Shown: positions 5,623-25,076 of the stretch, piece after piece
Layout: each line of letters starts with the position of its first letter
Position numbering within the stretch: position 1 is the first letter of the stretch
The notes under the pieces: model-generated
The model's database searches: none
What the model saw: the letters and a program-made list of their open reading frames with translations, nothing else
Told to the model about the DNA's origin: nothing
Program-made: the position numbers and the translations under genes
Source: an uncultured Pseudomonadota bacterium
Lineage (GTDB): Bacteria > Myxococcota_A > UBA796 > GCA-2862545
Assembly (NCBI GenBank): GCA_913061235.1
Contig: CAJXTB010000001.1
Span: forward strand, 124,001-188,000
Reading direction: 5' to 3'
DNA length: 64,000 nt

Positions 5623-6009
5623 CTACCCGCCAGCAGTCAGGAGCATGGACAGCTCCTGCGCCGACTGGGTCGAACGAATGGTGTAGGAAATCTGGACGCG
5701 AATCTTACCAGCGGAATCGGGAAATGCATCCACGTCGCTGACTTCGATTCTCGGCTCCCAGCGCACCAAGGCTTCTTTGATGTGTGCGGAAATCATGTAG
5801 GCAGTCGAGGGAGTGTTCGGCGCGAACATCATCTCGTAGGCTCGGCAACCAAACTCGGGCATCATCTGACGCTCGCCAGGTTTTGTCCCCAAGATGATGG
5901 TCATACAGTCGCGAATGTTGGCTTCATGCTCGCTCATGGTGACGCCACCACGACCCGACTCGAAACCGAAAGGAAAGGCCCAACCGCGACCTAGGAAGTC
6001 TTTGCGCAC
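5623..6009 (-). CDS. GPW/gp25-family baseplate protein (Afp9-like)
   Basis: 128 aa, normal size for gp25-type wedge proteins of contractile tails (lysozyme-like fold without need for lytic activity). Diagnostic stretches: FLGRGWAFPFGFES near the N-terminus, NIRDCMTIILGTKPGERQMM, PEFGCRAYEMMFAPNT, and a final EVSDVDAFPDSAGKIRVQI beta unit. The GTG start at 6009 is chosen because the conserved FLGRGWAFP segment follows it immediately; the later ATG would remove it. It directly precedes the large J gene (10-base gap). A 238-base non-coding stretch and a terminator separate it from the hub gene, so it probably has its own promoter. Confidence 0.92.
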   Translation of the reverse strand: MRKDFLGRGWAFPFGFESGRGGVTMSEHEANIRDCMTIILGTKPGERQMMPEFGCRAYEMMFAPNTPSTAYMISAHIKEALVRWEPRIEVSDVDAFPDSAGKIRVQISYTIRSTQSAQELSMLLTAGG

Positions 6010-6247: not shown

Positions 6248-7294
6248 CTACTGGTCGACGGTGTGCGTATTGCCCGAGAAAATGATCTGAGAGCTGTGCA
6301 GCCCGCCTGGCTCTAGAGTGTGGCGCACCGAGATGACGTAGCCTTCGGCAGCCATGCCCTTGTGCTGACCAGTAAGCTTGATCGTACAGCCGGCGCGAAC
6401 TTCCCCCGTGCCGTTGACCGTGGCGCGTCCCTTCATGAAGCCACGTGCCAGTCGGTTCAACTCACCGATGGCCATCAGCTTGGCGGCGTCTTGGCTCGCC
6501 ACCTGAACGTCCGTAATGAAGCTCTTGCCAGACCAGATGGGTCCGGCCTTGTCCACGGCTCCCTCACCACTGCCCATCTTCTCAATGTCAGCCTTCGTGG
6601 CCGTGCCCTCAACCTTCGCCTTTGTGACCGGATCCCAACCAATGACGGTCAGCTCGGTAGGAATCTGCTGATCCGTGAACTCAAAGTCCATGTTCGACAG
6701 CTTCGAAGCCGGAATCTCAATCGTATCGCCCTGGAAAGACGGCTTAATGAAGTTGATCTGTCCAGCATCCGCATTGACTTGGTAGCCATTGCGTGAGGCG
6801 AGTCGCTTCACGAACTCCAGATCCGACTCGTTGCGCTGAACAACGTGTGGGCTCTTACCGCTCGTTGAATCGACGGTGCCTGTTTCCAGTCCCGCCTCTC
6901 CAATGACCTGCTCGAAAATCTCCGAGTCCGTCATTTCCTCGAACGTACGCGTGTTGCGAGACGATGCCAGCTTTGTGGTGGGGTCCAGGGCCGTCAGAGT
7001 GACAACGGCCTTACCAGCCTGCCACGAGTGTCGTTTACCCGTCACCAACCCCTTGAAAGCCGCCTTGTCGCCGCCACCGAAGTGACACTCGACATCATCG
7101 CCAATGGCAATGTCACCCCAAGGGGACTTCTCGCCAGCGTTCGTGTTGAGGGTAATCTGGGCCATACCCATCATGTCTACGTGGTCCTCGACAACGAGGT
7201 TCACGAGGCCATTGGGTTCCGCCTGGGTGATCTCTACTCCTTTCAAGACAACCTTGAAATCTGGAGTGAGTTTCTTGTGTGTCAACTCCGCCAT
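6248..7294 (-). CDS. gpD/gp27-like baseplate hub protein (Afp8-like)
   Basis: 348 aa. The sequence follows late-control-D/VgrG N-terminal hub architecture: an initial beta domain (KLTPDFKVVLKGVEI), then GDDVECHFGGGD, a DPTTKLASSRNTRTFE segment, SEIFEQVIGEAGL, VVQRNESDLEFVKRLASRNG (the most diagnostic part) and a C-terminal IISGNTH-like beta strand region. It forms the trimeric hub that receives the tube. In Afp8 and VgrG the hub is fused to an OB-fold plus beta-helix spike; here the protein ends after the hub domains, so a separate spike protein must exist, and none is visible in the window. ATG start has GGGAG/AGAGC upstream. Confidence 0.85.
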   Translation of the reverse strand: MAELTHKKLTPDFKVVLKGVEITQAEPNGLVNLVVEDHVDMMGMAQITLNTNAGEKSPWGDIAIGDDVECHFGGGDKAAFKGLVTGKRHSWQAGKAVVTLTALDPTTKLASSRNTRTFEEMTDSEIFEQVIGEAGLETGTVDSTSGKSPHVVQRNESDLEFVKRLASRNGYQVNADAGQINFIKPSFQGDTIEIPASKLSNMDFEFTDQQIPTELTVIGWDPVTKAKVEGTATKADIEKMGSGEGAVDKAGPIWSGKSFITDVQVASQDAAKLMAIGELNRLARGFMKGRATVNGTGEVRAGCTIKLTGQHKGMAAEGYVISVRHTLEPGGLHSSQIIFSGNTHTVDQ

Positions 7295-7360: not shown

Positions 7361-8968
7361 TTAGCTGTCGTCATTGCCGCGGTTGCGATTGGCACGACTC
7401 ACGGAGTCCACTGCTTCCTTGAGGGAAACCTTGGCCGGAGCCGCAGGCTTAGCGGCGCTTGATGCGGCGGCACTTGATGCGGCGGCTGTCGACTCGGACG
7501 GTGAAGATTCACCAGATGCCTCTGCGGCCGGCTCACTCGGACGTTCCATAGTCGAGGAACTTGAACCGGAACTCGACTCTGAAGCGGAGCCTGCTGCAGC
7601 CCCACCCTGGTCATCATCATCCGACGACGCGTAGAGCGAGAACACATCGGACGAGCCCGATTCACCATGCTCAAACTCGGACGCGTCAGGACGGTCACCA
7701 TCGTATCCGGAGACGCCTGGGCCAGCGGCCATAGCTTGCGCACCGTCACCTTCGGAATTGATAGCTTCGAAACCATCAGGAGCTGCGTCAGGTGCGTCGA
7801 ACGTACTCGCCTCTACCGCACTCGCCGAGTACTCGGAGACACCCGGTCCAGCGGCTACGCCTTGTGCACCGTCACCTTCCGCCTTGATGGGCTCAAAGCC
7901 GTCGTCAACAGCTGGAGGAGCCTCAAACGTCGTGGCTTCAGGGGGTGCGCCTTCGTACTCAGACATTGCCCAATCGCCGCTGACCTGGTCACCGACGCCC
8001 ACTTCGAGAGCGGTCTCGGCGCCTAGGTCCTCGAGCTCTTGCTCAGCAAACGGATCCCACTCGCCATCGTAGATAGCGAAGATGTCGGCCAAGTCGGAGT
8101 CTGGGTTGAGCTGCGGGTCGTAGTCACCCCAGTACCAGTTGTCCTCCGGTGGCATGTGCTGGAAAATCTCCGCGCACTGCTGGTTCGGCGGAATCACCAG
8201 GGTGTCACCCGGTGTGAGGTTCATGGGGTCATCGATGTTATTCGCGCAGGCAATCCACCAAAACTCAATGGAGAGGAACAAGGCGATACCGCTGAGGGTG
8301 TCCCCTTCTTGCACGGTGTAGGTCGAGACTCCCGTAAAGCCCGTCGCGGTCTGAGTCGCGTTCGTCCCAACGCCCGCATGGTCTTGCGCAGCCGCGGACT
8401 GTCCTTGACCCGCGCCAGCGCTGATCTTGGCAGACTCGGTGCGACTGTTTGAACGGCCGCCAAACGCGGACACGGGCGCAGACAGTGTGACCCCTTCTTT
8501 GGAGCCAGTCCCAATCTGGTCTTCGCATCGCTCTTTGAGAGTAATGGAGACCTTGGCACGCAGTGGATTTCCGTTGCTCGCGAACATGATGAAAGAGGTA
8601 GAGACCTTTTCAATCACCGCCGGAAAGCTGAACGAACCCCAATTAAACGTGCATCTGGGCGGACGGGTCGCGTCGTGGACGTTGTCCGTGTCACTGACCG
8701 TGACGGACACAAAACCAGCCAGCTTGCTCGTCCACTTCTCACGAACATCATCACCAGAATCCGTCGTGTCGAAGATGAGTTCCATTGTCAGGGATGATGC
8801 CTTGCCGCGGTCGAATTCAACCAGTGGCTTGTCGATCTGAAACTCTTCCGACTCCTTCCAGGCCGCAGCCTCGTCGAGCTTCATTTCCTTAGGATTAAAC
8901 TGAACATAAAAAGTGGCGCCGCCGTCATCGTTGATGAAGTACGCCTTTTCGCTACCAATAGAACTCAT
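7361..8968 (-). CDS. CIS tube-domain/LysM baseplate protein with acidic repeat tail (Afp7-like)
   Basis: 535 aa in three parts. Residues 1-150 match the contractile-injection-system tube/gp53-like domain (FYVQFNPKEMKLDE, LTMELIFDTTDSGDDVR, PPRCTFNWGSF, NGNPLRAKVSITLKE). Residues about 215-265 are a LysM domain (YTVQEGDTLSGIALFL ... NLTPGDTLVIPP). The rest is a disordered, strongly acidic Ser/Ala/Glu/Asp tail containing a 42-residue repeat. Afp7-type proteins sit at the tube-baseplate junction; the long acidic tail is not usual for the family. The ATG lies three bases after the stop of the Arg-rich giant gene, with GGTGGTGA upstream, so the two are co-translated and probably made in a fixed ratio. 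Confidence 0.85.
   Translation of the reverse strand: MSSIGSEKAYFINDDGGATFYVQFNPKEMKLDEAAAWKESEEFQIDKPLVEFDRGKASSLTMELIFDTTDSGDDVREKWTSKLAGFVSVTVSDTDNVHDATRPPRCTFNWGSFSFPAVIEKVSTSFIMFASNGNPLRAKVSITLKERCEDQIGTGSKEGVTLSAPVSAFGGRSNSRTESAKISAGAGQGQSAAAQDHAGVGTNATQTATGFTGVSTYTVQEGDTLSGIALFLSIEFWWIACANNIDDPMNLTPGDTLVIPPNQQCAEIFQHMPPEDNWYWGDYDPQLNPDSDLADIFAIYDGEWDPFAEQELEDLGAETALEVGVGDQVSGDWAMSEYEGAPPEATTFEAPPAVDDGFEPIKAEGDGAQGVAAGPGVSEYSASAVEASTFDAPDAAPDGFEAINSEGDGAQAMAAGPGVSGYDGDRPDASEFEHGESGSSDVFSLYASSDDDDQGGAAAGSASESSSGSSSSTMERPSEPAAEASGESSPSESTAAASSAAASSAAKPAAPAKVSLKEAVDSVSRANRNRGNDDS
7704..7955 (-). repeat. 126-bp tandem repeat in the acidic LysM tail
   Basis: Two in-frame copies of a 126-bp (42-aa) unit, 7704-7829 and 7830-7955, with partial copies on both sides. 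Each encodes a segment of the form DGFExIxxEGDGAQxxAAGPGVSxY preceded by ExSTFxAP. The unit is rich in Asp, Glu, Gly and Ala with almost no positive charge. Because the period is a multiple of three, gain or loss of a copy would keep the reading frame. Confidence 0.8.
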
Positions 8969-8971: not shown

Positions 8972-11900
8972 TCACCACCCATTAGAACTTCCCTGACCAC
9001 GTTGCTGCGAGAGCTCCATCTCGCGCAACACTGCCTCGTACACTGCGCGCTGAAGCGCCTTAATATTCGGTGCCTCGACAGATTCTCCCGAAGCTGCCTC
9101 GCCGCCGCTACCACCCGCGTGCTCACCTTCTTGCGCCATGCGAACATGACGCTGTGCATCGGCCAAACGCCGCTCATTCTCTGCAAGGTGAACCAACTGC
9201 ATGAGCTTGTTTGCCAAGCGCATAGACTGCCCAGCACCGGCTTGACTACGGCGCGCAGGACGCGACCGCTGGCCATTCCAGGTGTTCTGAGTTGAGAACG
9301 ACTCTTCTGTGTCTGATGAGGGCGCCCGGTTGTGAACCGAGAGTGGCGCCAGCTCATCGACAGGCATGACATTGGCGGACAAGACCTGAGCTTCGTCCGT
9401 AGCGCGGACAATGCGCTGAACAAGCTCAACAGCAGGTCCAGGAAGCTCCTTCGAGATTCCACGCAAGCCGTCTGCACGCTCCATAATGACGCGAATGACG
9501 TCTTCTGCGCTTGTGGCTCTTGCGAGAGCGTGAAGCACCGTTCCAGCACCAGGTCGTGCCAGCGGTGTTCCGTCGGCAGCCCGTGGGCCAGCCTCTACAG
9601 AAGTAGCGGGTCCTCGAACGACTCCACTGCCGGTCTCAGCCCGGTGTGACCAAGCACGACCGTCATCTTCGACAGGGGTATTACTCGATGCCGTTGCCAG
9701 CGTTCCGACCGGTGCTGTCGACCGAGCGATGCGACCGAGCGTTTGCGACAAGCTTGGTCGCCGGCCAGCGCTAGTCGAGACCGAACGTGCCGAACGTGCC
9801 GAACGTGCCGAACGTGCCGAACGTGCCGAACGTGCAGACGACGGTGAAGTGCTCGCTGCGGATACGCGACGTTGTGCGGGAAGACGAGACGGTGCAACAC
9901 CGTATGTGTTCGACGTCGTGGCACGGCGCTCTGCATGAGCCACGGAAGACGAGCCGACGTAGCCATGACCCGAATGTGAAGCCGTGAACTCGTCAACGGG
10001 CTCGGCGGAGTCCACCATTGCCGATTGCGCGAGAACACCGGTCTGCCCCACGGCGGACCGATTCCGACGAGTTGCTGGAGCGGAAGAACCAAACTCCGCG
10101 CGACCGGTATCGGAGCGAGCTGCACTCGAACCCGCCGCAGTTGGACGACTCGTACCCGAAACACCACGCCCCACGACAGCGCCAGCGACCGTGCGCTTGC
10201 CTACCCGTTGAGAAACAGGCGACCGAGACATGGTTGGTGCGTACGCCTTTGTACGTTCAGGTTGGTGCTGGGCAACGCGCTGGGCGACAGACGTTGCGAC
10301 ACGCGGGCGCTCGGCACGCTCAAGCGCACGAACCACACCCGAGACTTGCTTCAACACGGAGTTGAGGTCGGCGCGACTCAATGGACCGCTGGCTTCAATC
10401 CGAATCGAAGGTGCCCCAGACGCAGCCGGGACGGATGTCCGTGTACGGGCACGTTCGGCGGGGGCCTGCGGTTCGGAAACCTCGGGGACCAACAAGCTGA
10501 AGTCGCGCGACGCACTGGCGTAGCCGACGGGACGCATGGAACGACGACGACGAGCAGCAAGAGGTGTCTGGGCGCGGCGCGAGACAGGTCCAGAAGACGA
10601 TTCGTCTGGAGTTGCCAAGGCCTGTTCAACCCGAGCCGCCGCATAGACGACTGAACCCGTTCCGACAGACGCCTTGCGGACGAGGCGACCTTCGACATCT
10701 TGGACCCGCACAGGTGCAGGGCGACGCTTCGACGATGACACTCCAGTTGAACGGGCCGCACCGTCTTGGACAGACTCGGGCGTTTCCACCGTTGGTGCCA
10801 GGAGTGTTCCGTCCGCCGACCGCATGCGGGTACGGCGTGTCGGTGTGTCTGCCGTTGCACGAACGGGGCGTTGAGCCCGCTCTACAGCAACAGTCTCGGC
10901 CGTCTGTGTCCGCGAACGAACCGAACGACGACGGGCCACGGGAGCCTCTGCGTTCGATGCCACGGCCGGAAGGCGGTCGGCGGCAGACAACTGTGCGGTG
11001 CCACCCTTGGAGCGCTGAGCCATGCGTGCTGTCGGCGATTCCACAGCAGCAGGGCCTTCGGGCCGTAGGACTACCGAATCAGGTGCCACTGTCCGGATGC
11101 GACGCACTGGCGATTTGGACAGCGGTTGTTCGCCGGCTTCTGTGCGCTGACGCACGTAGCGAGCTGGAGAGGCCGTCTGCAGAGCAACATCACGGTCGTC
11201 AACACGAGAGACCAAGTCGGCACGTTCATGCGCACGGGTCGTCGGACGACTGGAACGGGCGAGAGGTGCTGCAGCTTCCAAGGAGGTCTCGGACGCGACG
11301 GCGAGCTGGACAAAGTCCGTTGGCGACGGAGCCAGGTGAACATGCCGACGACGCGCTGGCGCCGAAGATGACGCAGCCACTCGCGACGACCGGCGTGACG
11401 GCTCGAATGCCGCAGCATGGCGAGCAAACGGAGCATCTACGCCACCAACGACGGGGCCTGCAGCGACTGGGCTCTGTGCCACTCGACGTAGACGGCGCGC
11501 CGCCCGTGCAGTGGGACGAGACACAGCTCGCTCGCTACGGTGTGATGCTTCCCGCGACAATGCAACCCGGGTCCGAGCAGTGCCCGTTGAGGGGCGGTCC
11601 GCAGTGGCTACGGTCTCAGAGTCATCGGCTCCAACAGGCTGTGCATACTGGAACCCAGTGGCGGTCTGGACCCTGCGGCGCGGTTGACCCATCGTAGGCT
11701 CGCTACGAAGTGACTCTTCGCGGCGAGCGGCAACACTCGTAAGAGCCGTGCCTGCCGTGCGACGTGTGACGGTCGATAGGACCTCCGACTCTTCGGCTTC
11801 GACAGGCTGGGCGTACTGGAACCCTGTGGCGGTCTGAACCATGCGACGAGGCCGGCGAACCGGTTCGCTTTGCGCAGCTACAGCACGGCTGACACCTGGA

Positions 11901-13240
11901 ATACGCAATGCCGTCGGCCCGTCCGGAGACACTGGGGCAAACATCGTCGCCTGAAGGCGAGTACCGGGACCAGCAACCGTGTGACGACGCGACAAGCGCC
12001 GACGCGGTGCGACGTCGTTCACGTAGGAGGTCGGCGACGCAGTCAGAGGACCGTTGACGTCAGCGACAGATGCGCGACGGACGACCCTAGTTTGAGCAGC
12101 ATGGGCTCGCACCGTGGACGGCTCGACAACCTGAGTACCGCGTGAGGTAGGAAGAATCGTTTCGATGGAAGCGGCTCGGGAGCGACGCGCAGCGCGAACC
12201 ATTGGCTGGACGCGGTCGACTCGCGGTGCTTCCGCCGAGATGGCGGACACCGAAGCCGAGCGTGGACCAGCCCGGCCGGCAGCAACCTGCTGCTGAACGT
12301 CACGGGAAGCGCTCGCGACAGAGACGCGACGACGGGCTGCCGTTGGCCGTGGCGCGGTCACAGGACGCAGCCGAGGCTGGACCTCCAACGGAGCCTGAAC
12401 CGCATCGTCAAACATCAAGGTCTTGAGAGTCGGCGACCCATGAAGTACGGGGCGAAGGCCCTTCCGACGGGACGCTTTTGCGTTTCCGCGGTCAGCCGCG
12501 ACGGCCACGGGACGAAGGTCCAAGGAATCACTGACGCCACCAGCCTCGACAACAGCCAAGCGACGCAGCGGACCGCGTACTCCACTTGCCAATTGCTTGA
12601 CCACGACCACCTGTTCGGCTTCATCGAGGTCAACAATCTGCTGACGGATGCGCTGGACGGCGCGACGGGTCGTTGGCGCAGCGGCCTCAATAGTGTCCAA
12701 CAATGACTGTGCGGCTGGAGCAAGCCTACGGCTCTTGCGGCGCAACCGGCGTGTCGGCGACTCCCGACGACGCGTTCCTGCGGGCGTCCATCCTTCCGCT
12801 TCGAGTTCTTCGATCAGCTCTTCACGAGAGACTGGGCGCTCAACCATGGTGAGCATGCTGTCTGTCGCCAAGTCGCTTCCGAGCGAGAAGCGCCTGACGC
12901 CCGCTGTGTCGGGGGCGACGCGGCGACGCGATGCGCCAGCACTGAACGAGTCCGATTGTGCCGCGATACGGCCGAGAAGGCGACGGCGAGCACGGGATGA
13001 GCGCCAAGATGCCTGCGCACGGAGTGCTGCGTAGTACGGCTCTGCCGACAAGAACGAGTACAGCCCGTCTTCATCGTTCAGACAATCCGTACCGACAAAC
13101 CCACGCTCGGAGAGGGGGTCAGCAAGGCCGAAGCGCTCGTAAAAGGCGGCAGGCGTTCCAATGGAGGGCCGTACGGTGCCGCGTCGCAATACGCGGGCGG
13201 ACAGGCGTTCTCCAGGAATTCGTCGTGTGTCGCTGCTCAT
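8972..13240 (-). CDS. giant Arg/Ser/Ala-rich disordered eCIS protein with PGExLSxRV N-terminus
   Basis: 1,422 aa, not assigned to a known family. It is dominated by Arg, Ser, Ala, Val and Thr, with short repeated segments (RRVQTATGFQYAQPV twice; six ARS tripeptides) and few long hydrophobic runs, so most of it is probably disordered and very basic. Only the first about 250 residues and last about 180 look foldable (helices with LIEELEAEG, VLHALARATSAEDVIRVI, MRLANKLMQLVHLAENE). The start at 13240 has GAGGA six bases upstream and yields MSSDTRRIPGERLSARV, whose PGExLSxRV recurs at the N-terminus of the DUF4157 protein at 22312. It sits between tube and LysM genes. Possible roles: tube-lumen filler or cargo, tape-measure analogue, or scaffold; all inference. 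Confidence 0.75.
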   Translation of the reverse strand: MSSDTRRIPGERLSARVLRRGTVRPSIGTPAAFYERFGLADPLSERGFVGTDCLNDEDGLYSFLSAEPYYAALRAQASWRSSRARRRLLGRIAAQSDSFSAGASRRRVAPDTAGVRRFSLGSDLATDSMLTMVERPVSREELIEELEAEGWTPAGTRRRESPTRRLRRKSRRLAPAAQSLLDTIEAAAPTTRRAVQRIRQQIVDLDEAEQVVVVKQLASGVRGPLRRLAVVEAGGVSDSLDLRPVAVAADRGNAKASRRKGLRPVLHGSPTLKTLMFDDAVQAPLEVQPRLRPVTAPRPTAARRRVSVASASRDVQQQVAAGRAGPRSASVSAISAEAPRVDRVQPMVRAARRSRAASIETILPTSRGTQVVEPSTVRAHAAQTRVVRRASVADVNGPLTASPTSYVNDVAPRRRLSRRHTVAGPGTRLQATMFAPVSPDGPTALRIPGVSRAVAAQSEPVRRPRRMVQTATGFQYAQPVEAEESEVLSTVTRRTAGTALTSVAARREESLRSEPTMGQPRRRVQTATGFQYAQPVGADDSETVATADRPSTGTARTRVALSREASHRSERAVSRPTARAARRLRRVAQSPVAAGPVVGGVDAPFARHAAAFEPSRRSSRVAASSSAPARRRHVHLAPSPTDFVQLAVASETSLEAAAPLARSSRPTTRAHERADLVSRVDDRDVALQTASPARYVRQRTEAGEQPLSKSPVRRIRTVAPDSVVLRPEGPAAVESPTARMAQRSKGGTAQLSAADRLPAVASNAEAPVARRRSVRSRTQTAETVAVERAQRPVRATADTPTRRTRMRSADGTLLAPTVETPESVQDGAARSTGVSSSKRRPAPVRVQDVEGRLVRKASVGTGSVVYAAARVEQALATPDESSSGPVSRRAQTPLAARRRRSMRPVGYASASRDFSLLVPEVSEPQAPAERARTRTSVPAASGAPSIRIEASGPLSRADLNSVLKQVSGVVRALERAERPRVATSVAQRVAQHQPERTKAYAPTMSRSPVSQRVGKRTVAGAVVGRGVSGTSRPTAAGSSAARSDTGRAEFGSSAPATRRNRSAVGQTGVLAQSAMVDSAEPVDEFTASHSGHGYVGSSSVAHAERRATTSNTYGVAPSRLPAQRRVSAASTSPSSARSARSARSARSARSARSVSTSAGRRPSLSQTLGRIARSTAPVGTLATASSNTPVEDDGRAWSHRAETGSGVVRGPATSVEAGPRAADGTPLARPGAGTVLHALARATSAEDVIRVIMERADGLRGISKELPGPAVELVQRIVRATDEAQVLSANVMPVDELAPLSVHNRAPSSDTEESFSTQNTWNGQRSRPARRSQAGAGQSMRLANKLMQLVHLAENERRLADAQRHVRMAQEGEHAGGSGGEAASGESVEAPNIKALQRAVYEAVLREMELSQQRGQGSSNGW
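9782..9835 (-). repeat. six perfect 9-bp tandem repeats (ARS tripeptide)
   Basis: The plus strand reads CGAACGTGC six times without a mismatch. On the coding strand this gives repeated Ala-Arg-Ser inside the giant eCIS protein. The period is a multiple of three, so slippage would change protein length without a frameshift. It is the only perfect short-unit array noticed in the window. Confidence 0.95.
11513..11848 (-). repeat. 168-bp tandem duplication in the giant eCIS gene
   Basis: Two adjacent copies of about 168 bp (56 aa), aligned by the shared RRVQTATGFQYAQPV / RRMVQTATGFQYAQPV stretch at the start of each, followed by an acidic E/D-S-E segment and a TGTA-rich stretch ending in SxRSE. 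Copies have diverged considerably, so this is an old in-frame duplication. Boundaries are approximate. Confidence 0.7.
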
Positions 13241-13300: not shown

Positions 13301-14089
13301 CTAGCGGCTCGGCTCTGGAGTGGGCGATGTCGCCGCTTCCAAAGTTCGTGTCTTCAGGCCATCATGGGCCAGTTCCAGAGTCTCAATGGCGAGGTCTGAA
13401 CCGCCGCCGTTCAACGATGGGCCCTCCCAAGAGACCGGCCAAGCATTCTCAAAAGCGTACTCGCGCAGAACTTCACCGTCATTGCGGCGTAGCTGGATGG
13501 CACCGGAGTACTTGGTGCGCTCGCTGAAGGAGTCCTTCAGAAAGGCGTCGCGCCACTCCAGCATGAACGTACTGGCAGAAGTAGCGTAGCGAAGCGACAA
13601 ATTGTCCCACTTGCTCTGCCCAGCACGCTTGTGAGTGAAGCCGTTCACCCCGCCCTCTTCAATCTCGAAGACGGCAGCGGTGCTCTTCATTCCCGACATT
13701 TCCATGAAGTGGGCGACCTCGTGCAGCTGACTAGAGTCACCGCCGAAGCTGTACGTCCCCTTGCCCTTAAGGATCTGGAGGGCAAAGTAGTACCCACCCC
13801 AAGGATCGATATCGAGCACGCCACCTTCGGTAGGAGTGTAGCGGCCCGTATTGTACTGTCCCGTTGGGCGATGCACATCACGGGCCTCGAAGCGGCCTAC
13901 GTTGTATGCGCCGTTCGGCTGGGGCAAGTCCCGGTTTTCGTACCCGCCGCCAGGGTTGTAGTCACCCGACGGTTTGGCAACATACCGAGGCTCAAAAGAA
14001 CCGGGGTTGTACGGTGCCGCTCCCATTCGCAGAGATGCCCGAAAGGAAAAGCCCTTGGTCATCCACGAGGGCTTGCTGTAGCCAGCCAT
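13301..14089 (-). CDS. gp19-like tail tube protein with N-terminal YNxG repeat extension
   Basis: 262 aa. Residues about 100-250 are a T4 gp19/Afp1-type tube domain: YYFALQILKGKGTYSFGG, HEVAHFMEMSGMKSTAAVFE, WDNLSLRYATSASTFMLEWR, RRNDGEVLREYAFENAWPV, then DLAIETLELAHDGL. Ordinary tube subunits are about 150 aa; here the first about 95 residues are a Pro/Gly/Tyr/Asn/Arg-rich extension with four imperfect copies of a 17-residue unit (PxGxYNxGRFExRDVxx). Tube subunits stack as hexameric rings that carry cargo in the lumen. This is the only tube gene seen, whereas Afp has three. It lies 21 bases downstream of the second sheath gene. Start ATG is preceded by GGGAG. Confidence 0.88.
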   Translation of the reverse strand: MAGYSKPSWMTKGFSFRASLRMGAAPYNPGSFEPRYVAKPSGDYNPGGGYENRDLPQPNGAYNVGRFEARDVHRPTGQYNTGRYTPTEGGVLDIDPWGGYYFALQILKGKGTYSFGGDSSQLHEVAHFMEMSGMKSTAAVFEIEEGGVNGFTHKRAGQSKWDNLSLRYATSASTFMLEWRDAFLKDSFSERTKYSGAIQLRRNDGEVLREYAFENAWPVSWEGPSLNGGGSDLAIETLELAHDGLKTRTLEAATSPTPEPSR

Positions 14090-14110: not shown

Positions 14111-15298
14111 CTAAACAGAACCTGGGCCCCCAAGACGGAGCTCCACAACAATATACTCCGCAGTTGTGACTGGGCGTACCAAAACTTTCACATGTATCTG
14201 CCCGGCGTCCCGAATCTCGGGCGGATTCAGCTCCTCATCGCACTGTACGAGGTACTCTGTGCCCACTTTCTGTCCGGTCAGCATCCCACCAGCCCACAGC
14301 TCATCGAGGCGCGAGCGAATGGTGCGCTCGACAACACGCCAGAGCTCTGGTCGCTGATTTTCGAACACGACCCACTCAGAATCGCGGCGAATCTGCTCGG
14401 TGAGGTAGTTCATGATTCGACGCGAATTGATGTGTAGGAACGCCGAATCTCGTGAAAGTGTGCGGGAGCCCCACACCACCACGCCACGTGTTGGTTGAAC
14501 CAAGATCGGGTTGATCCCGGCCTCATTCAACGCACCAGACTCCTTCCACTTCACTTCGACTGCCGGGTGGGTCACGCCCTCAATCACTTCATTTGCTGGG
14601 GGCCAACGAACACCAAACGGATTGTTCTTGTTTTCAACCCGAGCAAACACACCCGCAACGCTTCCGGATGGCGGAAACATCTCGTCTCCGTTCATCAGCC
14701 ATGGGTAGTAGATGGCGCCAAAGGACGCAAAGGTGGAGTAGCGCTTCCGAAAGTCCCCTACCCACTTCACCAATTGATCTTCGTGCAAGTCGCGGGGCGT
14801 ATCGAAGATGGCGAAGCGGTTGTTCATCTGGTGGCAATGCTGAAGCAACAACGCCATGATTGGCTCGGCCTTCACCTCAACCTGATCTCGCCCAAACCGA
14901 ACAGGCAAATAGGCCAGCAGCGGCATGGTGATGAGGCCAATGTCTTCCTCGCCTCGCAACCGGTCTAGAACCGGGTCCCACACAAGGTTCGAGGGGTCAT
15001 CTGTCAGGAGGTCGTCTTGCGACGTGATGCAGATACCGATGAGCTTCGCCGTCCGCCCACCGTTGCCAAAGAAGCTCTTCACCGCGCGTACGCTGACCGG
15101 GTCAAACATTCCTCGAGCAGGGTTGCGCGCAAACTCGGCCCAAGACTGCAGAGTGAACTCTATGTAGTCACCGCGCACAGCTCCCCGTGGCCATCGAGAG
15201 CCAGGGATGATGGCCAGAAACGCCGTAATATCACTACGGACCAGATCGCTCTCTTCAGAGCGCTCCGTCGCGTGTTGAATGGTAATACCAGCGCGCAA
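14111..15298 (-). CDS. second, short tail sheath protein
   Basis: 395 aa sheath-family protein. The C-terminal half has the conserved sheath core: YYPWL, PPSGSVAGVFARVE, GVRWPPANEVIEGVTHP, NPILVQPTRGVVVWGSRTLS, FLHINSRRIMNYLTEQIR and YLVQCDEELNPPEI. The N-terminus lacks the usual HPGVYxEE start and the large outer insertion domain of the main sheath. eCIS particles normally have several sheath paralogues, short forms being placed near the baseplate. The TTG start at 15298 is selected because GGAGGA lies seven bases upstream (in TTCGGAGGAACGGC) and no upstream ATG is in frame. Confidence 0.92.
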   Translation of the reverse strand: MRAGITIQHATERSEESDLVRSDITAFLAIIPGSRWPRGAVRGDYIEFTLQSWAEFARNPARGMFDPVSVRAVKSFFGNGGRTAKLIGICITSQDDLLTDDPSNLVWDPVLDRLRGEEDIGLITMPLLAYLPVRFGRDQVEVKAEPIMALLLQHCHQMNNRFAIFDTPRDLHEDQLVKWVGDFRKRYSTFASFGAIYYPWLMNGDEMFPPSGSVAGVFARVENKNNPFGVRWPPANEVIEGVTHPAVEVKWKESGALNEAGINPILVQPTRGVVVWGSRTLSRDSAFLHINSRRIMNYLTEQIRRDSEWVVFENQRPELWRVVERTIRSRLDELWAGGMLTGQKVGTEYLVQCDEELNPPEIRDAGQIHVKVLVRPVTTAEYIVVELRLGGPGSV

Positions 15299-15321: not shown

Positions 15322-15480
15322 TTAGGCCGGCTTGTTAATCTTCTCATTGATGGTCGAGATTTCTTTGACCCAAGCATGTCGCTCACGATGCGACATGCTC
15401 TGAATCTCTTCTCGGGTCCAATGGAAGTGGTAGGCGATGAAAGCTACCTCCTTGAAGATATTCTCCAGGGGGTAGCTTAC
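15322..15480 (-). CDS. DUF6760-like eCIS mini-protein, start codon unclear
   Basis: A 52-53-residue frame between two confident eCIS genes. It reads YPLENIFKEVAFIAYHFHW, then TREEIQSMSHRERHAWVKEI, ending NEKINKPA, which matches my recollection of the small DUF6760 proteins found in this position of many eCIS and phage-tail clusters (EVAF.AYHFHW ... RR.WV.EI..IN). The family role is unknown. No ATG, GTG or TTG precedes the conserved segment in frame: the first codons after the in-frame TGA include ATC (15483-15481) and GTA (15480-15478). A rare ATC/ATT-type start with the GGGGGA just upstream, or a ribosomal slip from the overlapping upstream gene, is possible. Coordinates begin at the GTA codon. 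Confidence 0.7.
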   Translation of the reverse strand, partial: VSYPLENIFKEVAFIAYHFHWTREEIQSMSHRERHAWVKEISTINEKINKPA

Positions 15481-15842
15481 GATTCCCCCAGGCGTCCAAA
15501 CTCCCGGTCAAACCGGTGGCCACATTCTGGGCACGTCACACGAACGACGGCTTCGTCTTCGTTGATTCGATTGTACAGTTCTTCGAGGAACCGAAGGTCA
15601 CCCGCGAACATGTTCTCGATGACGCCTGTGTTCACCTCGCCGAGCGTGCCCAGCTTAGTGATGACGCGCGAGAGCAGCACGATGATGAGGTAGGCCCGGT
15701 TGCGCTGGACGCGAAGGTCATTCAACGGAATGATTTCGTCTTTGGCATTGGCCAAACGCATCACACCGTCACGATGAATGTTGCCGTCGGCGTCGACGTA
15801 GCCACGGGGGAGAGTGAACTCGTACTCAGTCTTGAGTTCCAT
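15477..15842 (-). CDS. eCIS phage tail assembly protein
   Basis: 121 aa from the ATG at 15842 (MELKTEYEFTLPRGYVD); the frame extends 21 codons upstream but GGAG sits before this ATG and homologues as I recall begin here. Conserved features: TLPRGYVDADGNIHRDGVMR, NDLRVQRNRAYLIIVLLSRV, LEELYNRIN, and a terminal CPECGHRF knuckle with one CxxC. The family lies beside sheath genes in eCIS clusters and is thought to help tail assembly, analogous to phage tail assembly chaperones; the evidence for that is positional. Its end overlaps the DUF6760-like frame, an arrangement often used for coupled or slipped translation. Confidence 0.8.
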   Translation of the reverse strand: MELKTEYEFTLPRGYVDADGNIHRDGVMRLANAKDEIIPLNDLRVQRNRAYLIIVLLSRVITKLGTLGEVNTGVIENMFAGDLRFLEELYNRINEDEAVVRVTCPECGHRFDREFGRLGES

Positions 15843-15907
15843 GCGGGGTGCTCCAAAAAGGCAAATCAGGTGGTTGGATACATAAAACGTGTCCGGTGAG
15901 GACAAAC

Positions 15908-15954: not shown

Positions 15955-17736
15955 CTACTCTTCGATGGCGGCGCCGCCGTCCCACTGACCGATCGAGAAG
16001 ATCACGAACTCGGCAGGCTTGACGGGGCAGAGACCAACTTGGACGTTGACCTGGCCGGCGTCAATGAGGTAGCGCGGGTTCGTTTCTTCGTCACACTTGA
16101 CGTAGAACGCTTCTTCTGGCGTCTTGCCGAAGAGTGCGCCCGAGCGCCAGACACGGAGCAGGTAGCTGCGAACGTCACGTGAGAGCTTGGCCCACAAGTT
16201 GTGATCATTCGGTTCGAACACGGCCCACTGCATGCCATTGATGATCGACTGCTCAATCATGATGAACAAGCGGCGAACGTTGATGTACTTCCAGCTCGGG
16301 TCCGACTTGGTAGCCAAGGTGCGAGCACCCCAGACACGGATTCCACGGTCCTTGAAGATACGGATGACGTTGACGCCACGGTCATTGTACTGACCCTGCT
16401 CGATCTTGTTGATCTTCTGCGACAAGCCCGTGATTCCCATGAGAATCTCGTTGGCCGGTGCCTTGTGCACACCGCGCTCGCCATCGACGCGGGCGAAGAG
16501 GCCTGCGACGTGACCGGAAGGTGGCAGGTAGAGTTCCTGACCCTTTTCGGCCTTGATGAGCTTACGACGAAGCGGGCCCGAGACGCTGATGTCTTGTTCG
16601 CCAACGTACCAGCTTGGCTGGGTGACCTTGACCCAAGGCACGTACATAGCGCCGTAGCCCTTGTTCGATGCGGGGATGTCAACATCACCGGTCGAGAGCA
16701 ACGGTCCATCAAGAATCGCGAAGCGGTCCTTGCGGGTTTCACAATGCTCAAGCATTTCGCGCTGCTGGTTGAAGGACAAGCCTGTTGCAACGTGCATGGC
16801 CATGTCTTCGCAATCATCGAATGCGTAAAGACCGACCTTGTCAGCCTGGTTTTCGCGAATCGAGCACTGGAGGTTCTGGACGCCGAGGAGGTAGACGTAC
16901 GCCTTGCCGCCACCATTGTCGTAGAATCCATTCACAGATGCGACGAAGTTGAACACGGAGTCCTGTGACAGGAACTCGCGGAACTGCGTCTTGAGGCTGT
17001 CATCGTTGGCCAAGGCCTCAAAGACGGCGTCAGCAGCTTCATCTGGGTCGTCGATCTTCTCGCCAACCAGCTCTTCGATGGACTTGGTCTCAACGAGGTA
17101 CTGTGCGAAGAAGCTCTGGAGCCAGCGGAAGAATTCCGACTTGTTGGTAACGCCGAACGGCGAGACCGAGTACTCGCTGAGCATCGCGGTGCCCTTGGCA
17201 CTCTGGAACTCGTAGCCGTAGACTTCAAGGAGGTCCTTGGCGGCCTTCGGCTTCGGAGCACCGATTGCGAAGTTCTCGTTGACGTCGTTGAGGAGTTGTT
17301 CCACAGCGATGTCGTCGTCAGTAAGGACGGCGCCCTTAGTGTCGAGAAGGTCAGCGCTGACCTCCATGGACTCCTTGCCGACCGTAATCTTGGTCATGCC
17401 CTTGCCACCAGCGCCGAACGTCGGCTTGTGGCCGTTGAGTTCGAGCAACTTGGCAACATTGCGAACCTGGCCGCGCTTCAGCTTGAACGCTTGGGTAAGC
17501 GCCGTGACGGCCTCTTCCGAGTCGCCGGTCACCTTTCCGCTGCTGTCGACCAGCTGCGGAATGACCTTGCCGGTCACGGTCTTCGTGCCGTCGCTACCGG
17601 TCAGTGCAATCGCATCAGTCGGCGGCTCGAACTCAAACAGTCCGAGAAAGCCGGGAATCGACGTCGCAACGGACGAGATGGGCTTCGGTCCGGAGTCGAC
17701 CTCGCGGATGTATACGCCTGGTGTATGGTATTCCAT
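15955..17736 (-). CDS. main contractile tail sheath protein
   Basis: 593 aa. N-terminus EYHTPGVYIREVDSGPKPI is the canonical sheath start; SSVATSIPGFLGLFE follows. The variable outer domain (about 45-250) includes YGYEFQSAKGTAM and an acidic helical region. The conserved C-terminal core: ERCxTRKDRFAILDGP, YGAMYVPWVKV, PPSGHVAGLFARVDGE, APANEILMGITGL, IRVWGARTLATKSDPSW, YINVRRLFIMIEQSI, FYVKCDEETNPRYLIDAGQ. Sheath subunits form the outer helical cylinder whose contraction drives the tube. It is followed by a hairpin that may set its high expression relative to the rest of the operon. Homology is unambiguous. Confidence 0.96.
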   Translation of the reverse strand: MEYHTPGVYIREVDSGPKPISSVATSIPGFLGLFEFEPPTDAIALTGSDGTKTVTGKVIPQLVDSSGKVTGDSEEAVTALTQAFKLKRGQVRNVAKLLELNGHKPTFGAGGKGMTKITVGKESMEVSADLLDTKGAVLTDDDIAVEQLLNDVNENFAIGAPKPKAAKDLLEVYGYEFQSAKGTAMLSEYSVSPFGVTNKSEFFRWLQSFFAQYLVETKSIEELVGEKIDDPDEAADAVFEALANDDSLKTQFREFLSQDSVFNFVASVNGFYDNGGGKAYVYLLGVQNLQCSIRENQADKVGLYAFDDCEDMAMHVATGLSFNQQREMLEHCETRKDRFAILDGPLLSTGDVDIPASNKGYGAMYVPWVKVTQPSWYVGEQDISVSGPLRRKLIKAEKGQELYLPPSGHVAGLFARVDGERGVHKAPANEILMGITGLSQKINKIEQGQYNDRGVNVIRIFKDRGIRVWGARTLATKSDPSWKYINVRRLFIMIEQSIINGMQWAVFEPNDHNLWAKLSRDVRSYLLRVWRSGALFGKTPEEAFYVKCDEETNPRYLIDAGQVNVQVGLCPVKPAEFVIFSIGQWDGGAAIEE

Positions 17737-17772: not shown

Positions 17773-18579
17773 TCAAGAATCGTCGTCGCCGGGGTTGATG
17801 TCTGTGATGCGGCGCGCAGGGCGTGCTCGCATTCGTCCACTGGCAGATTCTCTGCCAGAGGAACGTTGGTTGGTTCTGGGAGCCGCAAGGGCTTCCTGGT
17901 TGAAATCGAAATCGGTTGCGAATGGGAGGTCCGTGACCAGCGACCCTTCAATAGCACAACGTGCTTTGTAGGTCAGGAATGGACGGTATGGAGCCTCATG
18001 AATCGTGAAGAAGTTGATGGCGTCACCCACGGTGAGATCATCTACAAGCGCGAGTGCGACTTTTTCGTAGATTACCTCATCTCCAGTGTTCTCTGGCCCC
18101 CATTGGTTGCCCGTGGAATCCACGGCCTGCCCATCTGGCAGGAGGTACTTGCGGGGACGGTACAGCAAGTGAGTCGCTTCGTGAAGCCGCAGAAGCAACC
18201 AACCCAACAATCGTTCAGCGTCCGATCGAAACTTGGAGTGCACGGCAATCAAATAATGCAGTTCCAAGTACAAAGGTGGGCGTTCCCAGTAGACCTCTTT
18301 CGGGTCGAGAATCCCTTGAGCATTTTCTTCCGCAGTGAACTTTGCCATGCGGCGCCGCTTGGAGTTGATGAGCGAGGTGTTCTGGGTCGTCTTGTACATG
18401 TAGACGTAAACAACCTCTTCCCGGTCCTTTGGAACGAAAGAAAGATCTTCCTCGATGCGCGGCTTCGGCCCGTCCGACTTCCAGCCGTCGAGCAGGAAGC
18501 GGTGAAGGGCTTCGGTCACTTCGCCAATCGTATGGCGCCCCTGCATCGGTCCAGTGGTGCGTGTCGACTCTTCGCTCAT
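17773..18579 (-). CDS. Pvc16/Afp16-like tail terminator protein (DUF4255)
   Basis: 268 aa from the ATG at 18579, which overlaps the preceding stop (ATGA) and has GAGGGA upstream; an upstream in-frame TTG is less likely. Residues about 20-200 show the DUF4255/Pvc16 N-terminal pattern: TIGEVTEALHRFLLDGW, VYVYMYKTTQNTSLIN, RPPLYLELHYLIAVHSK, AERLLGWLLLRLHEATHLL, then FFTIHEAPYRPFLTYKAR. The protein caps the tube-sheath end and terminates assembly. The last about 50 residues are a disordered Arg-rich tail (SSGRESASGRMRARPARR), a composition shared with the neighbouring 159-aa and giant proteins. Confidence 0.85.
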   Translation of the reverse strand: MSEESTRTTGPMQGRHTIGEVTEALHRFLLDGWKSDGPKPRIEEDLSFVPKDREEVVYVYMYKTTQNTSLINSKRRRMAKFTAEENAQGILDPKEVYWERPPLYLELHYLIAVHSKFRSDAERLLGWLLLRLHEATHLLYRPRKYLLPDGQAVDSTGNQWGPENTGDEVIYEKVALALVDDLTVGDAINFFTIHEAPYRPFLTYKARCAIEGSLVTDLPFATDFDFNQEALAAPRTNQRSSGRESASGRMRARPARRITDINPGDDDS

Positions 18580-19055
18580 TGTCCGTCCCTCGTCAGCCAA
18601 TCATCGACCGATGGAATCGTGGGCATTGCTGCCCGGGGCGCTGGATCGGTTCTCAACGGGCTGCCACCCTTTAGGGCTGCACGAAGGTCGATCAAGGCTG
18701 TGCTCACCGGTTCACGTCCGTCCAGACGGCACGCGTCCCAAGGAATAGGCTCGACTATCTTCAGCCGGCGCCCACTCGCGGTGTGTTGGCGGTAGGGGTA
18801 GCGCACCAGTCTCTTTAGAAGCGGTGCGTTCGGCCAGGGCTTGCCCAAGTTCTGAATCCGCCTTGGCTTTCCTTCCCGCACCCGAACTTTCGACTCCCGC
18901 ACGGCAGGTGCTTCACGCAACGGCTTGTCTCGGGCACCGAGACGCGCCATCTCCGGGCGAGGGTCAGAAAGACCTTCTCCGGGGTATTTGCGCTTGAGAC
19001 GATCGCGAGGGTCCATGTGAGTCCATGTGGCGGGGAGCCGGAAACTCATCATCAT
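18576..19055 (-). CDS. unknown basic eCIS-operon protein with PGExLS motif
   Basis: 159 aa, or 146 aa if translation starts at the internal ATG giving MDPRDRLKRKYPGEGLS. I do not recognise the family. Strongly basic, Pro/Arg-rich, without membrane segment; the only foldable-looking part is the C-terminal half (PWDACRLDGREPVSTALID, LRAALKGG). A KYPGEGLS segment resembles the N-terminal PGExLS motif of the giant and DUF4157 proteins, although the following residues differ. As first gene of the minus-strand eCIS operon, coupled (ATGA) to the Pvc16-like gene, it probably belongs to the particle or its assembly. Neither start has a strong Shine-Dalgarno sequence. Confidence 0.6.
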   Translation of the reverse strand: MMMSFRLPATWTHMDPRDRLKRKYPGEGLSDPRPEMARLGARDKPLREAPAVRESKVRVREGKPRRIQNLGKPWPNAPLLKRLVRYPYRQHTASGRRLKIVEPIPWDACRLDGREPVSTALIDLRAALKGGSPLRTDPAPRAAMPTIPSVDDWLTRDGQ

Positions 19056-22271: not shown

Positions 22272-22311
22272 GCTTCTATCTCCGTTTTTGTTTCTATATT
22301 TGGGAGACCCT

Positions 22312-22914
22312 ATGTCTAACCGCACTGTTCCCGGCGAGTCACTTTCTCGTCGCGTAGCCTCCCGCGATGCCGGCCTCATGCGCCGCACCATGTCTGACGG
22401 TGGCGAGGTCTATAGCGGTCCCCTCGCCCGTCGTGCTCTCCGTGCTCTCGGCGCGCGCGCCATGACCATGGACCACACAATCCTTGTCGACGACGACTTC
22501 GATGAGAGCAATCCAGAAGACCAAGCGCTGTACGCCCATGAGCGATTTCACCAGATGGAATCCGGCGGCGCAGACAACTCGGACGACCTACACGACGCCG
22601 AGGAAATGGGTGCGCAGGCCGTGGAACGTATGGTGTTGCACCGTGCGCACGCTGGCGAAGACTTCGGCGCCATCATGCGAGACGTCAAGGCTGGCGGCGG
22701 TGCGACTCATAGCTCAGACTCCATGGGCCCCAGCCCTGCGACTACCGGCGGCCCGGGACAAGACCTGAGCGTCGAACAGAAGGCCTACATGGCCCTGCGA
22801 AAGCAGGGAAAGAGCCACACGGCTATTGTAACCGAGCTCGCCCGCAAGGTTGTCGAGGGCATGAAGAAGCAGGAAGAGTCCGCTCCAATGCGCGGCGGTA
22901 GCAGCCGCTGGTAG
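22312..22914 (+). CDS. solo DUF4157 (eCIS core) protein with PGExLSxRV N-terminus
   Basis: 200 aa. Residues 35-85 match the DUF4157/eCIS-core domain: LARRALRALGARAMTM, a short ILVDDDF strand, NPEDQALYAHERFHQMESG. The HERFH at 76-80 fits the HExxH metalloprotease motif. In other bacteria this domain is a hallmark of eCIS loci and is often fused to large cargo; here it is short and alone. The N-terminus MSNRTVPGESLSRRV and C-terminus RGGSSRW resemble the ends of the giant protein. A C-terminal helix (VTELARKVVEGMKKQEE) precedes the end. ATG at 22312 has GGGAG upstream; an earlier TTG is not needed. Next gene downstream is the eCIS ATPase. Confidence 0.8.
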   Translation: MSNRTVPGESLSRRVASRDAGLMRRTMSDGGEVYSGPLARRALRALGARAMTMDHTILVDDDFDESNPEDQALYAHERFHQMESGGADNSDDLHDAEEMGAQAVERMVLHRAHAGEDFGAIMRDVKAGGGATHSSDSMGPSPATTGGPGQDLSVEQKAYMALRKQGKSHTAIVTELARKVVEGMKKQEESAPMRGGSSRW

Positions 22915-22979
22915 TCAACTTAGCGGGCATCCTGCGCTGACCAGCGCCAGCCGGTACACTGCCCGCCACGAGGGTGTGT

Positions 22980-25076
22980 ATGTCGTCGACAGTGTTCTCT
23001 GACCTCGCGCGGCGCTTGCGTCGTACCGATTTGTTGCTCCTACGCGCGGTGCGCCGTCAGCGTGCTCGCCCAGCCATGCGGGCCAAGGGCCAGTTCTGGG
23101 GCTCCGTCATTACTGACGACGAAGTCGATGCTCTGCTCCGTGCACATGGGGAGATTGACTACGTCATCGGTGCGGACGGTCTAGACGATGCCATTGCTGC
23201 ATCCGTCAGCTACCGCGACGCACCGACCGGTCGTTTTGCACGTCTAAAGAGGGCTTTCGATCTAGACGGCGACGACATTGACCTGCTGCTTCTGTCACTG
23301 GCACCTGAGATTAGCGCCGGCTACGGCAAGATCTTCGCCTACCTGAACGACAACTTGAACCAAGCGTATCTAACGGTCGACTTGGCGAGTCGCGTGCTTC
23401 GCCAGGAGCGACGGCAGCGACTGGCCCTCCAGAGCCGCCTACTGCCTGGCTCTCCCACCATCCAGAACCGACTGCTACTGCTCAACCCATCGGAAGGTGT
23501 AGAGACGCACACGTCGCGCCGACTGCATCCTGCCCCGCGCTTGCTGCGGTGGTTGCTCCAAGAGACCGTGGCGCTGGGGGACGGTGCAACAACCATGGAT
23601 ACGTCTGCCGCGCCGTTCATCCCAGGACAATCAAAGGAGCGGCTTGAGCAGCTACAAGGGTCACTAAACTCACCCATCACGGTCGCAATCGTGGGTGGAA
23701 CCGGAGGACTGCGCGAAGGCGTGGCCATCGAAGTAGCCCGACAGGCGGGGCGTCCGCTCGTTCGTATCGACGTCGAACGCATCAAGCCGTACTTGGACAA
23801 GCCGTACGAGCTGATTCGCGACCTGCGTCTCGATGGCGCCGTTCCCTACCTCATCAACGTACCCGACACGGATGACGAGCCTGCACTGCGTATGCAGATG
23901 ATGGCCATGGGTACTGCACTTCGCTCCCTTCCCTTCCCAGTTTGTGTAGGCGGCAACGACCGGCGTGCCGTCGCCGCCATGCTCGGAAGCGACCGGGTCA
24001 ATGTGACCGTTCCCGTCGGGCGTTCCACCAGCGAAGAGCGTGTGGGCGCGTGGACTGAGGCCATTGGTGGTCGTGGGTGGGACGTGAACATGGCGGCCGA
24101 GATCTCTGAACGCTTCTACAGCGTGGGCGGCACGACCATCCACCGGGTGTTGGAGCGCGCCGAGGCAGAAGCTGGCGGCATTGAACCAGACATCGAGCTC
24201 ATTTGGGCGGCATGTCGGGAAGCGGCCCGGCCCGAGTTCAGCGGCTTGGCTGAGCATGTGGTTCCTCGGTACAACTGGGAGGACCTCATCCTGCCGGAGA
24301 ACATTCTCTACCAACTCAAGCACCTAGAGAACTACCTGGCTCAGCAAGAGACGGTCATGCACAAGTGGGGCGGTAAGAAAATCCGCCCCCGTGGCTACGG
24401 CATCAAGGCCCTGTTTTCTGGGGCGCCAGGTACCGGAAAGACGATGTGCGCCGAGGTTATCGCCGGCGCGCTTGGCCTGGACTTGTTCAAGGTCGACCTA
24501 TCCAGCGTCATTAGTCGCTGGGTTGGTGAGACCGAGAAGAATCTCAAGGAAATCTTCGACTCCGCAGAAGGCGGAAGCTCCATCATCCTGTTTGACGAAG
24601 GCGACGCCCTGTTCGGCTCTCGTGGTGAAGTGAAGGGTGCACAGGACAAGTTCGCTAACCAAGAGGTCAGCTACCTGCTGCAACGCCTCGAAGTCTTCGA
24701 AGGCTGCTGCGTCATTACCACCAACCTCCAAGAGAACATTGATGAGGCGTTCTTACGACGCTTCGGAGCTGTGATTGAGTTTCCGATGCCTACGGCTGAC
24801 GAAAGAGAAAAGCTCTGGAACCGCGCGATTCCCCCATACGCCCCTCGCAGCGGCGACCTCGACACCCGCTACCTTGCCGAGCAATTCTCCCTGGCTGGCG
24901 GTAGCATCATCAATGCGTCCATCAACGCCTGCATTGTTGCGGCGTCGCGCTCAGAAGACGTAGGCATGACGCACTGCGTAGAGGCCATTGCGCGTGAGTT
25001 GTACAAGATGGGCAAGCAGGTCAATCGCGTGCACTTCGGCAGGTACTACGACGATATCTCGCACATCTTCAACTAG
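22980..25076 (+). CDS. eCIS AAA+ ATPase (Afp15-like)
   Basis: 698 aa. C-terminal AAA module: Walker A SGAPGTGKTM (about residue 480), Walker B IILFDEGDALFGSR (about 535-548), sensor VITTNL, and a DEAFLRRFGAVIEFPMP arginine-finger region. In typical eCIS ATPases Walker B reads DEADALFG; here the third position is Gly, but the catalytic Asp-Glu pair is kept. The N-terminal about 430 residues include a helical domain (DGDDIDLLLLSLAPEIS) and a degenerate first AAA-like region (VAIVGGTGGLREGVA). Afp15 homologues are needed for particle assembly. ATG at 22980 has GAGGG upstream. It follows the DUF4157 gene by 65 bases and is separated from the structural operon by argE-hutF. Confidence 0.92.
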   Translation: MSSTVFSDLARRLRRTDLLLLRAVRRQRARPAMRAKGQFWGSVITDDEVDALLRAHGEIDYVIGADGLDDAIAASVSYRDAPTGRFARLKRAFDLDGDDIDLLLLSLAPEISAGYGKIFAYLNDNLNQAYLTVDLASRVLRQERRQRLALQSRLLPGSPTIQNRLLLLNPSEGVETHTSRRLHPAPRLLRWLLQETVALGDGATTMDTSAAPFIPGQSKERLEQLQGSLNSPITVAIVGGTGGLREGVAIEVARQAGRPLVRIDVERIKPYLDKPYELIRDLRLDGAVPYLINVPDTDDEPALRMQMMAMGTALRSLPFPVCVGGNDRRAVAAMLGSDRVNVTVPVGRSTSEERVGAWTEAIGGRGWDVNMAAEISERFYSVGGTTIHRVLERAEAEAGGIEPDIELIWAACREAARPEFSGLAEHVVPRYNWEDLILPENILYQLKHLENYLAQQETVMHKWGGKKIRPRGYGIKALFSGAPGTGKTMCAEVIAGALGLDLFKVDLSSVISRWVGETEKNLKEIFDSAEGGSSIILFDEGDALFGSRGEVKGAQDKFANQEVSYLLQRLEVFEGCCVITTNLQENIDEAFLRRFGAVIEFPMPTADEREKLWNRAIPPYAPRSGDLDTRYLAEQFSLAGGSIINASINACIVAASRSEDVGMTHCVEAIARELYKMGKQVNRVHFGRYYDDISHIFN

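What the first reader, a model, noticed from the sequence alone, without database searches (positions are those of the whole stretch)
8972..13240. 1,422-aa basic, disordered protein between tube and LysM genes: candidate new eCIS component
Known Afp/PVC operons have no protein of this composition at this position. It is very Arg-rich, repetitive and apparently disordered, yet its small N- and C-terminal domains look folded, and its gene is coupled to the LysM baseplate gene. Tape-measure proteins are long but helical; cargo toxins are usually encoded at the 3-prime end. Possible roles are lumen filler or nucleic-acid-like packing agent, cargo carrier, or scaffold. Position and coupling are seen; role is inference.
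Basis: partly seen in the sequence, partly recalled or inferred. Interest (0 to 1): 0.75.

Follow-up and report, generated by a model that had tools for sequence, protein, structure and literature searches.

The report
Giant arginine-rich injection-tube plug protein
This bacterium's phage-tail-like injection machine encodes a 1,422-residue, strongly positively charged protein that sits in the gene position of a tiny known "plug" protein and ends in a plug-like helix, so it most likely anchors at the base of the injection tube and runs a long charged arm up its bore.

Summary
In detail: window 8972-13240 (minus strand) encodes a real 1,422-aa protein, X (14.5% Arg, 1% Lys, net +89, pI 11.6), between a tail-tube gene and the LysM gene of an eCIS operon. 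It is selected as protein (dN/dS 0.06-0.35 in relatives) and conserved: 52 of 63 genomes of its order carry X, usually 1,000-1,900 aa. The two ends are conserved and predicted helical; the middle is variable and polycationic. X's last helix fits the solved Alg6 helix in exact register (P about 2e-4). A wider Myxococcota family of roughly 1,000-1,800-aa slot proteins shares that helix and a positive net charge. X lacks Alg6's N-terminal strand and fails the Pfam threshold. Best reading: a plug-type anchor with a giant cationic luminal arm, a new variant of a known kind. A tape measure is possible; no other candidate was seen in the operon. But a 206-aa and a 545-aa form exist, indel balance fits drift, and some relatives lack the gene. 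Role is inferred.

The parts
8972..13240 (-). X: 1,422-aa Arg-rich protein in the plug (Cis6) slot, including stop codon
   Evidence: ORF and composition; homologues at the same place; purifying selection
12851..13240 (-). Conserved N-terminal region (130 aa): motif RRIPGERLSARV and FYERFGLADP...FLSAEPYY; helices predicted
   Evidence: alignment A4, AlphaFold helices 11-22, 31-37, 67-99, mean pLDDT 72
9725..12850 (-). Variable polycationic middle (about +84), length-variable in relatives; proposed luminal arm
9374..9538 (-). Helical C-terminal domain (residues 63-117 of the last 250 aa)
   Evidence: AlphaFold, block pLDDT 82-92; conserved in A3
9107..9250 (-). 48-residue conserved helix (LANKLMQLVHLAENERRLADAQRHVRMAQ)
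8999..9067 (-). C-terminal plug-like helix NIKALQRAVYEAVLREMELSQQR
   Evidence: AlphaFold helix 221-241; match to Alg6 helix; match to distant slot proteins
7361..8968 (-). LysM tube-initiator gene (Cis7-like; CIS_tube + LysM) with an acidic C-terminal tail (-47)
13301..14089 (-). Tail tube (gp19/CIS tube), 262 aa with a repetitive N-terminal extension
6248..7294 (-). Spike/hub (Phage_GPD, VgrG/Cis8-like): proposed docking site of the plug helix
   Evidence: docking inferred from PMC8894135
14111..15298 (-). Second sheath protein
15955..17736 (-). Main sheath protein
17773..18600 (-). Cap protein (Pvc16_N)
   Evidence: only Pvc16 match in the genome
20..6009 (-). Baseplate genes: gp25 (5623-6009), baseplate J (2082-5612), Tail_P2_I (973-2082), CIS13-like (20-955)
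22288..22914 (+). Small eCIS_core (PF13699) protein beside the AAA+ ATPase, co-restricted with X
22974..25076 (+). AAA+ ATPase with winged-helix domain (Cis15/Pvc15-like)

Best explanation
X is a plug-type luminal protein of the eCIS. Its C-terminal helix, probably as a trimer as in Alg6, seats in the tube-facing cavity of the spike next to the LysM tube initiator. The very long Arg-rich middle runs into and largely fills the tube bore, held by its positive charge against the acidic tube wall. Shown here: gene slot, conserved helix with register match to solved Alg6, conserved ends, conserved positive charge, length range. Inferred: docking on the spike, trimer state, luminal location, charge pairing.
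For: Slot: in solved CISs the gene between tube and LysM is Cis6/Alg6, a trimer of N-terminal strand + loop + C-terminal helix in the spike cavity; its loop reaches into the lumen, the lumen is negatively charged, and deleting Alg6 abolishes particles (PMC8894135, PMC8894136). A true 53-aa Alg6 relative (DUF5908; hits PDB 7aef and 7b5h) fills this slot in a phylum relative. X's last helix aligns without gaps to Alg6's (D, L, E, V, L, E, R shared with the X consensus); an X profile ranks Alg6's helix above all 35,611 core-protein 23-mers, composition-shuffle P 1.5e-4, best window exactly at Alg6's C terminus. Distant Myxococcota slot proteins share the helix (hhalign P 8.7e-6), and a profile built only from them finds X in five order members (E 1.8e-5 to 5.5e-4). 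Of 33 such proteins or fragments 31 are net positive; the two exceptions are fragments of 201 aa or less. Three copies of X would fill about 60% of a 3.6 x 90 nm lumen.
Against: No member passes the DUF5908 cut-off (2 of 24 sub-threshold, best E 0.038); hhalign of X against the three Alg6-type sequences is weak (P 0.0099). X lacks Alg6's N-terminal MPxEIxEL strand. Profile searches of the PDB found no Alg6. Class-level relatives (L158, L162, L163) have no plug in the slot and none was found elsewhere in the locus. The lumen charge of this particular tube was not determined.
Confidence: 0.6

Rival explanations
1. X is the tape-measure protein of this eCIS: its length sets the tube length, with N and C ends anchored at cap and spike.
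For: It lies in the tape-measure position of P2/Mu-type phages (general knowledge), is the longest ORF of the operon, has conserved ends and a variable middle, and no other tape-measure candidate was seen in the operon. Most complete copies are 1,189-1,430 aa (interquartile range). Some CISs lack Afp14 (PMC10066040).
Against: Complete copies of about 206 aa (G022) and 545 aa (G031) occur beside intact tube and LysM genes. Net length change between close pairs equals a random walk of indels. Relatives without any such gene exist. No tape-measure homology. The middle does not look like a long helix (Pro 7%, Gly 6%; inference).
Confidence: 0.25
2. X is mainly cargo: a tape-measure-like effector ejected into the target or acting in the producer, like Tme of Streptomyces davawensis.
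For: Tme lies just upstream of the baseplate genes, is about 70% disordered and carries a cationic segment (PMC11126660). X's distribution matches that of a small eCIS_core protein beside the AAA+ ATPase, and their N termini share a short PGExLSxR(V/L)xxR motif in some genomes.
Against: X has no eCIS_core or other domain match; the most conserved end is the C terminus, which looks like an anchor; the motif is short and not in all orthologues.
Confidence: 0.25
3. X is a nucleic-acid-binding or packaging protein.
For: Arg-rich, pI 11.6.
Against: No nucleic-acid-binding domain found; slot and plug helix point to the spike; CIS particles carry no genome (general knowledge).
Confidence: 0.05

Closest known systems
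Alg6 / Cis6 / Afp6 / Pvc6 spike plug (Pfam DUF5908)
   Same: Gene slot between tube and LysM; C-terminal helix in the same register at or near the C terminus
   Different: X is 1,422 aa instead of about 50, lacks the N-terminal strand, adds a polycationic middle and two further conserved regions, and fails the Pfam threshold
Tme, tape-measure-related effector of the Streptomyces davawensis CIS (PMC11126660)
   Same: Very long, largely disordered, with a cationic stretch, encoded just before the baseplate genes
   Different: Tme has a DUF4157 domain, transmembrane helices and a C-terminal nuclease; X matches no such domain and ends in a conserved helix
Afp14/Cis14 and phage tape-measure proteins
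   Same: Long, conserved ends, variable middle, phage-like position
   Different: No homology found; short forms exist; in Afp the tape measure is encoded elsewhere in the operon (general knowledge)

Membership tests
Cis6/Alg6 spike plug (DUF5908) | Gene directly between tube/initiator and LysM (Cis7) | tested here: met
Cis6/Alg6 spike plug (DUF5908) | C-terminal amphipathic helix matching the plug helix | tested here: met
   P about 2e-4, exact register; AlphaFold helix
Cis6/Alg6 spike plug (DUF5908) | Pfam PF19265 score over cut-off | tested here: not met
   best E 0.038, sub-threshold
Cis6/Alg6 spike plug (DUF5908) | Small protein (about 50-60 aa) with N-terminal MPxEIxEL strand | tested here: not met
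   X is 1,422 aa; its N-terminal consensus differs
Cis6/Alg6 spike plug (DUF5908) | Trimer seated in the spike cavity; needed for assembly | not testable with these tools
   needs a structure and a knock-out
Tape-measure protein | Sequence or profile homology to phage or Afp14 tape measures | tested here: inconclusive
   no hit in Pfam, PHROGs, NCBIfam; no Afp14 sequence was compared directly
Tape-measure protein | Length proportional to tube length | not testable with these tools
   no particle images; length spread 206-1,879 aa
eCIS effector with eCIS_core (DUF4157) | PF13699 domain | tested here: not met
   no Pfam hit in X; the domain is in window 22288-22914 instead

The most novel reading that the evidence does not exclude
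In many Myxococcota CISs the small spike plug and the tape measure are one protein: a plug helix fused to a very long, arginine-rich chain that both fills the tube and measures its length, replacing Cis14.
Probability: 0.22. Interest if true: 0.75.

Novelty: new variant of a known kind. Interest (0 to 1): 0.55.

Why it matters
Several CISs lack a recognised plug or tape measure (Streptomyces, haloarchaea: PMC10066040, PMC11566945), and a recent survey detects Cis6 by homology to the small plugs (PMC12210884), which would miss giant forms. If X is a plug with a luminal arm, it links spike assembly to what occupies the tube, and offers a concrete candidate for how bore filling or length is set where Cis14 is missing.

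Tried and rejected
(1) Direct profile and fold links: Pfam, PHROGs, NCBIfam and PDB sequence searches of X and of both ends gave nothing convincing; the fold comparison of the C-terminal model gave only common helical-bundle matches, Z 6 or less. The N-terminal model was not searched. (2) A 13-residue periodicity in the middle: strong in L042 (z 10.5) and in aromatics of L059/L060/L064, absent from the window's X, and not specific to lag 13 in an independent set of 30 proteins; dropped as a general ruler. (3) Compensated indels as a sign of length constraint: not seen. (4) LysM acidic tail as a partner of X: most relatives have a much shorter LysM protein. (5) Shared N-terminal motif with the small eCIS_core protein as a loading signal: seen in a few genomes, only RLxxR in others; kept as a weak lead. 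(6) Whole-protein genome search with X failed twice on the server, so ends and neighbours were used. (7) I first took 15477-15905 for a tube gene; it is not.

Full report
What is there. The window (G000:C1:124001-188000) holds an eCIS operon on the minus strand: cap Pvc16 (17773-18600), main sheath (15955-17736), a 142-aa conserved gene (15477-15905), second sheath (14111-15298), tube (13301-14089), X (8972-13240), LysM tube initiator (7361-8968), spike/hub (6248-7294), gp25, baseplate J, Tail_P2_I and a CIS13-like gene. An AAA+ ATPase with a winged-helix domain lies divergently at 22974-25076. I saw no other large unassigned gene in the operon.

X itself. X has 1,422 residues, 14.5% Arg and 1.0% Lys, pI 11.6 and net charge +89, nearly all of it in the middle. 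The other operon proteins are mostly net negative. In close relatives N, middle and C parts all evolve under purifying selection (dN/dS 0.06-0.35). AlphaFold on alignments of the two ends gives helices: in the last 250 aa a helical domain (63-117), a 48-residue helix (159-206) and a last helix (221-241), pTM 0.44; in the first 130 aa a 33-residue helix, pTM 0.32. The middle was not folded; its disorder is inferred, and the charge-hydropathy test is borderline.

Distribution. A LysM query found the system in 67 of 94 relatives. Reading the slot in 40 loci showed an Arg-rich ORF in nearly all members of the order. A C-terminal profile finds X in 53 of 71 genomes of the class, 52 of them among the 63 of the order (the one hit outside, G064, is weak). 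Complete copies range from 545 to 1,879 aa, median 1,236, plus one of about 206 aa that keeps a start motif and the C-terminal region without a long middle (G022). Named records of the same loci are mostly uncultured Myxococcota and 'Deltaproteobacteria'. Beyond the order, Myxococcales MAGs and a Planctomycetota MAG have 1,190-1,806-aa proteins in the same slot that end in a related helix; a profile of those C-termini hits 50 of 379 phylum genomes, mostly in ORFs of about 900-1,800 aa, and independently finds X in five order members.

What it is. In AlgoCIS and the Anabaena CIS the gene between tube and LysM is Alg6/Cis6, the orthologue of Afp6: a trimer with a C-terminal helix plugged in the spike cavity, a loop reaching into the bore, contacts to Alg7 and Alg8, and no particles without it; the bore is 3.6 nm wide, 90.2 nm long and negatively charged (PMC8894135, PMC8894136). 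In phylum relative G188 a 53-aa DUF5908 protein that hits the solved Alg6 and Cis6 chains (E 1.2e-6 and 2.6e-4) fills the slot. X's final helix (DIEALxREVLExVxRELExRRER in relatives) aligns without gaps to Alg6's DKQQLVAQCVEQVLDVLKSQKER. An X profile scores Alg6 above every one of 35,611 core-protein 23-mers, and the best position is exactly Alg6's C terminus. Among 12,902 P/G-free 23-mers only seven score as high, and most of those are slot proteins themselves; composition shuffles give P 1.5e-4. Cis6 (P 5.5e-3) and the G188 protein (P 1.9e-3) are weaker. hhalign with only three plug sequences is weak, and no Pfam cut-off is passed. So I claim 'works like a plug, probably related', not 'is a DUF5908 protein'.

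How it would work. The helix seats in the spike; the cationic chain occupies the acidic bore. Slot proteins outside the order are also net positive in 31 of 33 cases. Three copies would take about 60% of a 90-nm bore, so X could be the main luminal content or a brush through which cargo is packed. All of this last step is inference.

Tape measure or cargo. Position and gene size suit a tape measure, and CISs without Cis14 are known (PMC10066040, PMC11566945). But length is only loosely kept: indels between close pairs add up as a random walk, and a 206-aa and a 545-aa form sit in otherwise intact loci. Class-level relatives have 44-51 bases between tube and LysM and no plug found elsewhere in the locus. 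Cargo is suggested by analogy with Tme (PMC11126660) and by co-restriction with a small eCIS_core protein beside the AAA+ ATPase: both genes occur through the order and are essentially missing from families f7-f9. Since this follows the tree, it is weak evidence for a working link.

Limits. Genomes are mostly MAGs; contig ends cut many copies. The Alg6 link rests on one short helix plus synteny. No particle data exist in what I read for this lineage.

Noticed in passing
L002:19083-19991 (G000:C1:123083-123991, directly downstream of the CIS13-like gene): A gene with an N-terminal ubiquitin-like YukD domain, probable membrane helices and a C-terminal RING-like zinc finger follows the baseplate genes; 53 ORF hits across the fetched loci (duplicate loci counted), YukD over the Pfam cut-off in one relative; separate YukD-like and RING-like ORFs sit there in f7 (L068:1-1091).
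   Followed up: partly
window 22288-22914: Small eCIS_core (DUF4157) protein upstream of the AAA+ ATPase; present in 54 of 71 class genomes with a distribution close to X's; shares a short N-terminal motif with X in a few genomes.
   Followed up: partly
G000 (L237-L246): Ten eCIS_core matches, nine over cut-off, are scattered over the genome in ORFs of 220-2,672 aa: a likely cargo set for this eCIS.
   Followed up: no
window 15477-15905: Conserved gene between the two sheath genes, about 120 aa in relatives, with a CPECGH zinc-ribbon-like C-terminus; no family over cut-off.
   Followed up: partly
window 7361-8158: The LysM protein carries a long acidic C-terminal tail (-47) that most relatives lack.
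   Followed up: no
window 13301-14089: The tube protein has an N-terminal extension of short repeats (YNPGSFEPR, YNVGRFEAR, YNTGRYTP).
   Followed up: no
L042:988-4557 and L059, L060, L064: Some X homologues contain clear 13-residue repeats in the middle; the window's X does not.
   Followed up: yes
G031 (C90 and C277): One genome carries two X copies (545 aa, and at least 564 aa cut by a contig end) on different contigs.
   Followed up: no
G188 (C13 and C126): One genome has both a small DUF5908 plug and a separate 1,811-aa ORF with the slot-protein helix.
   Followed up: no
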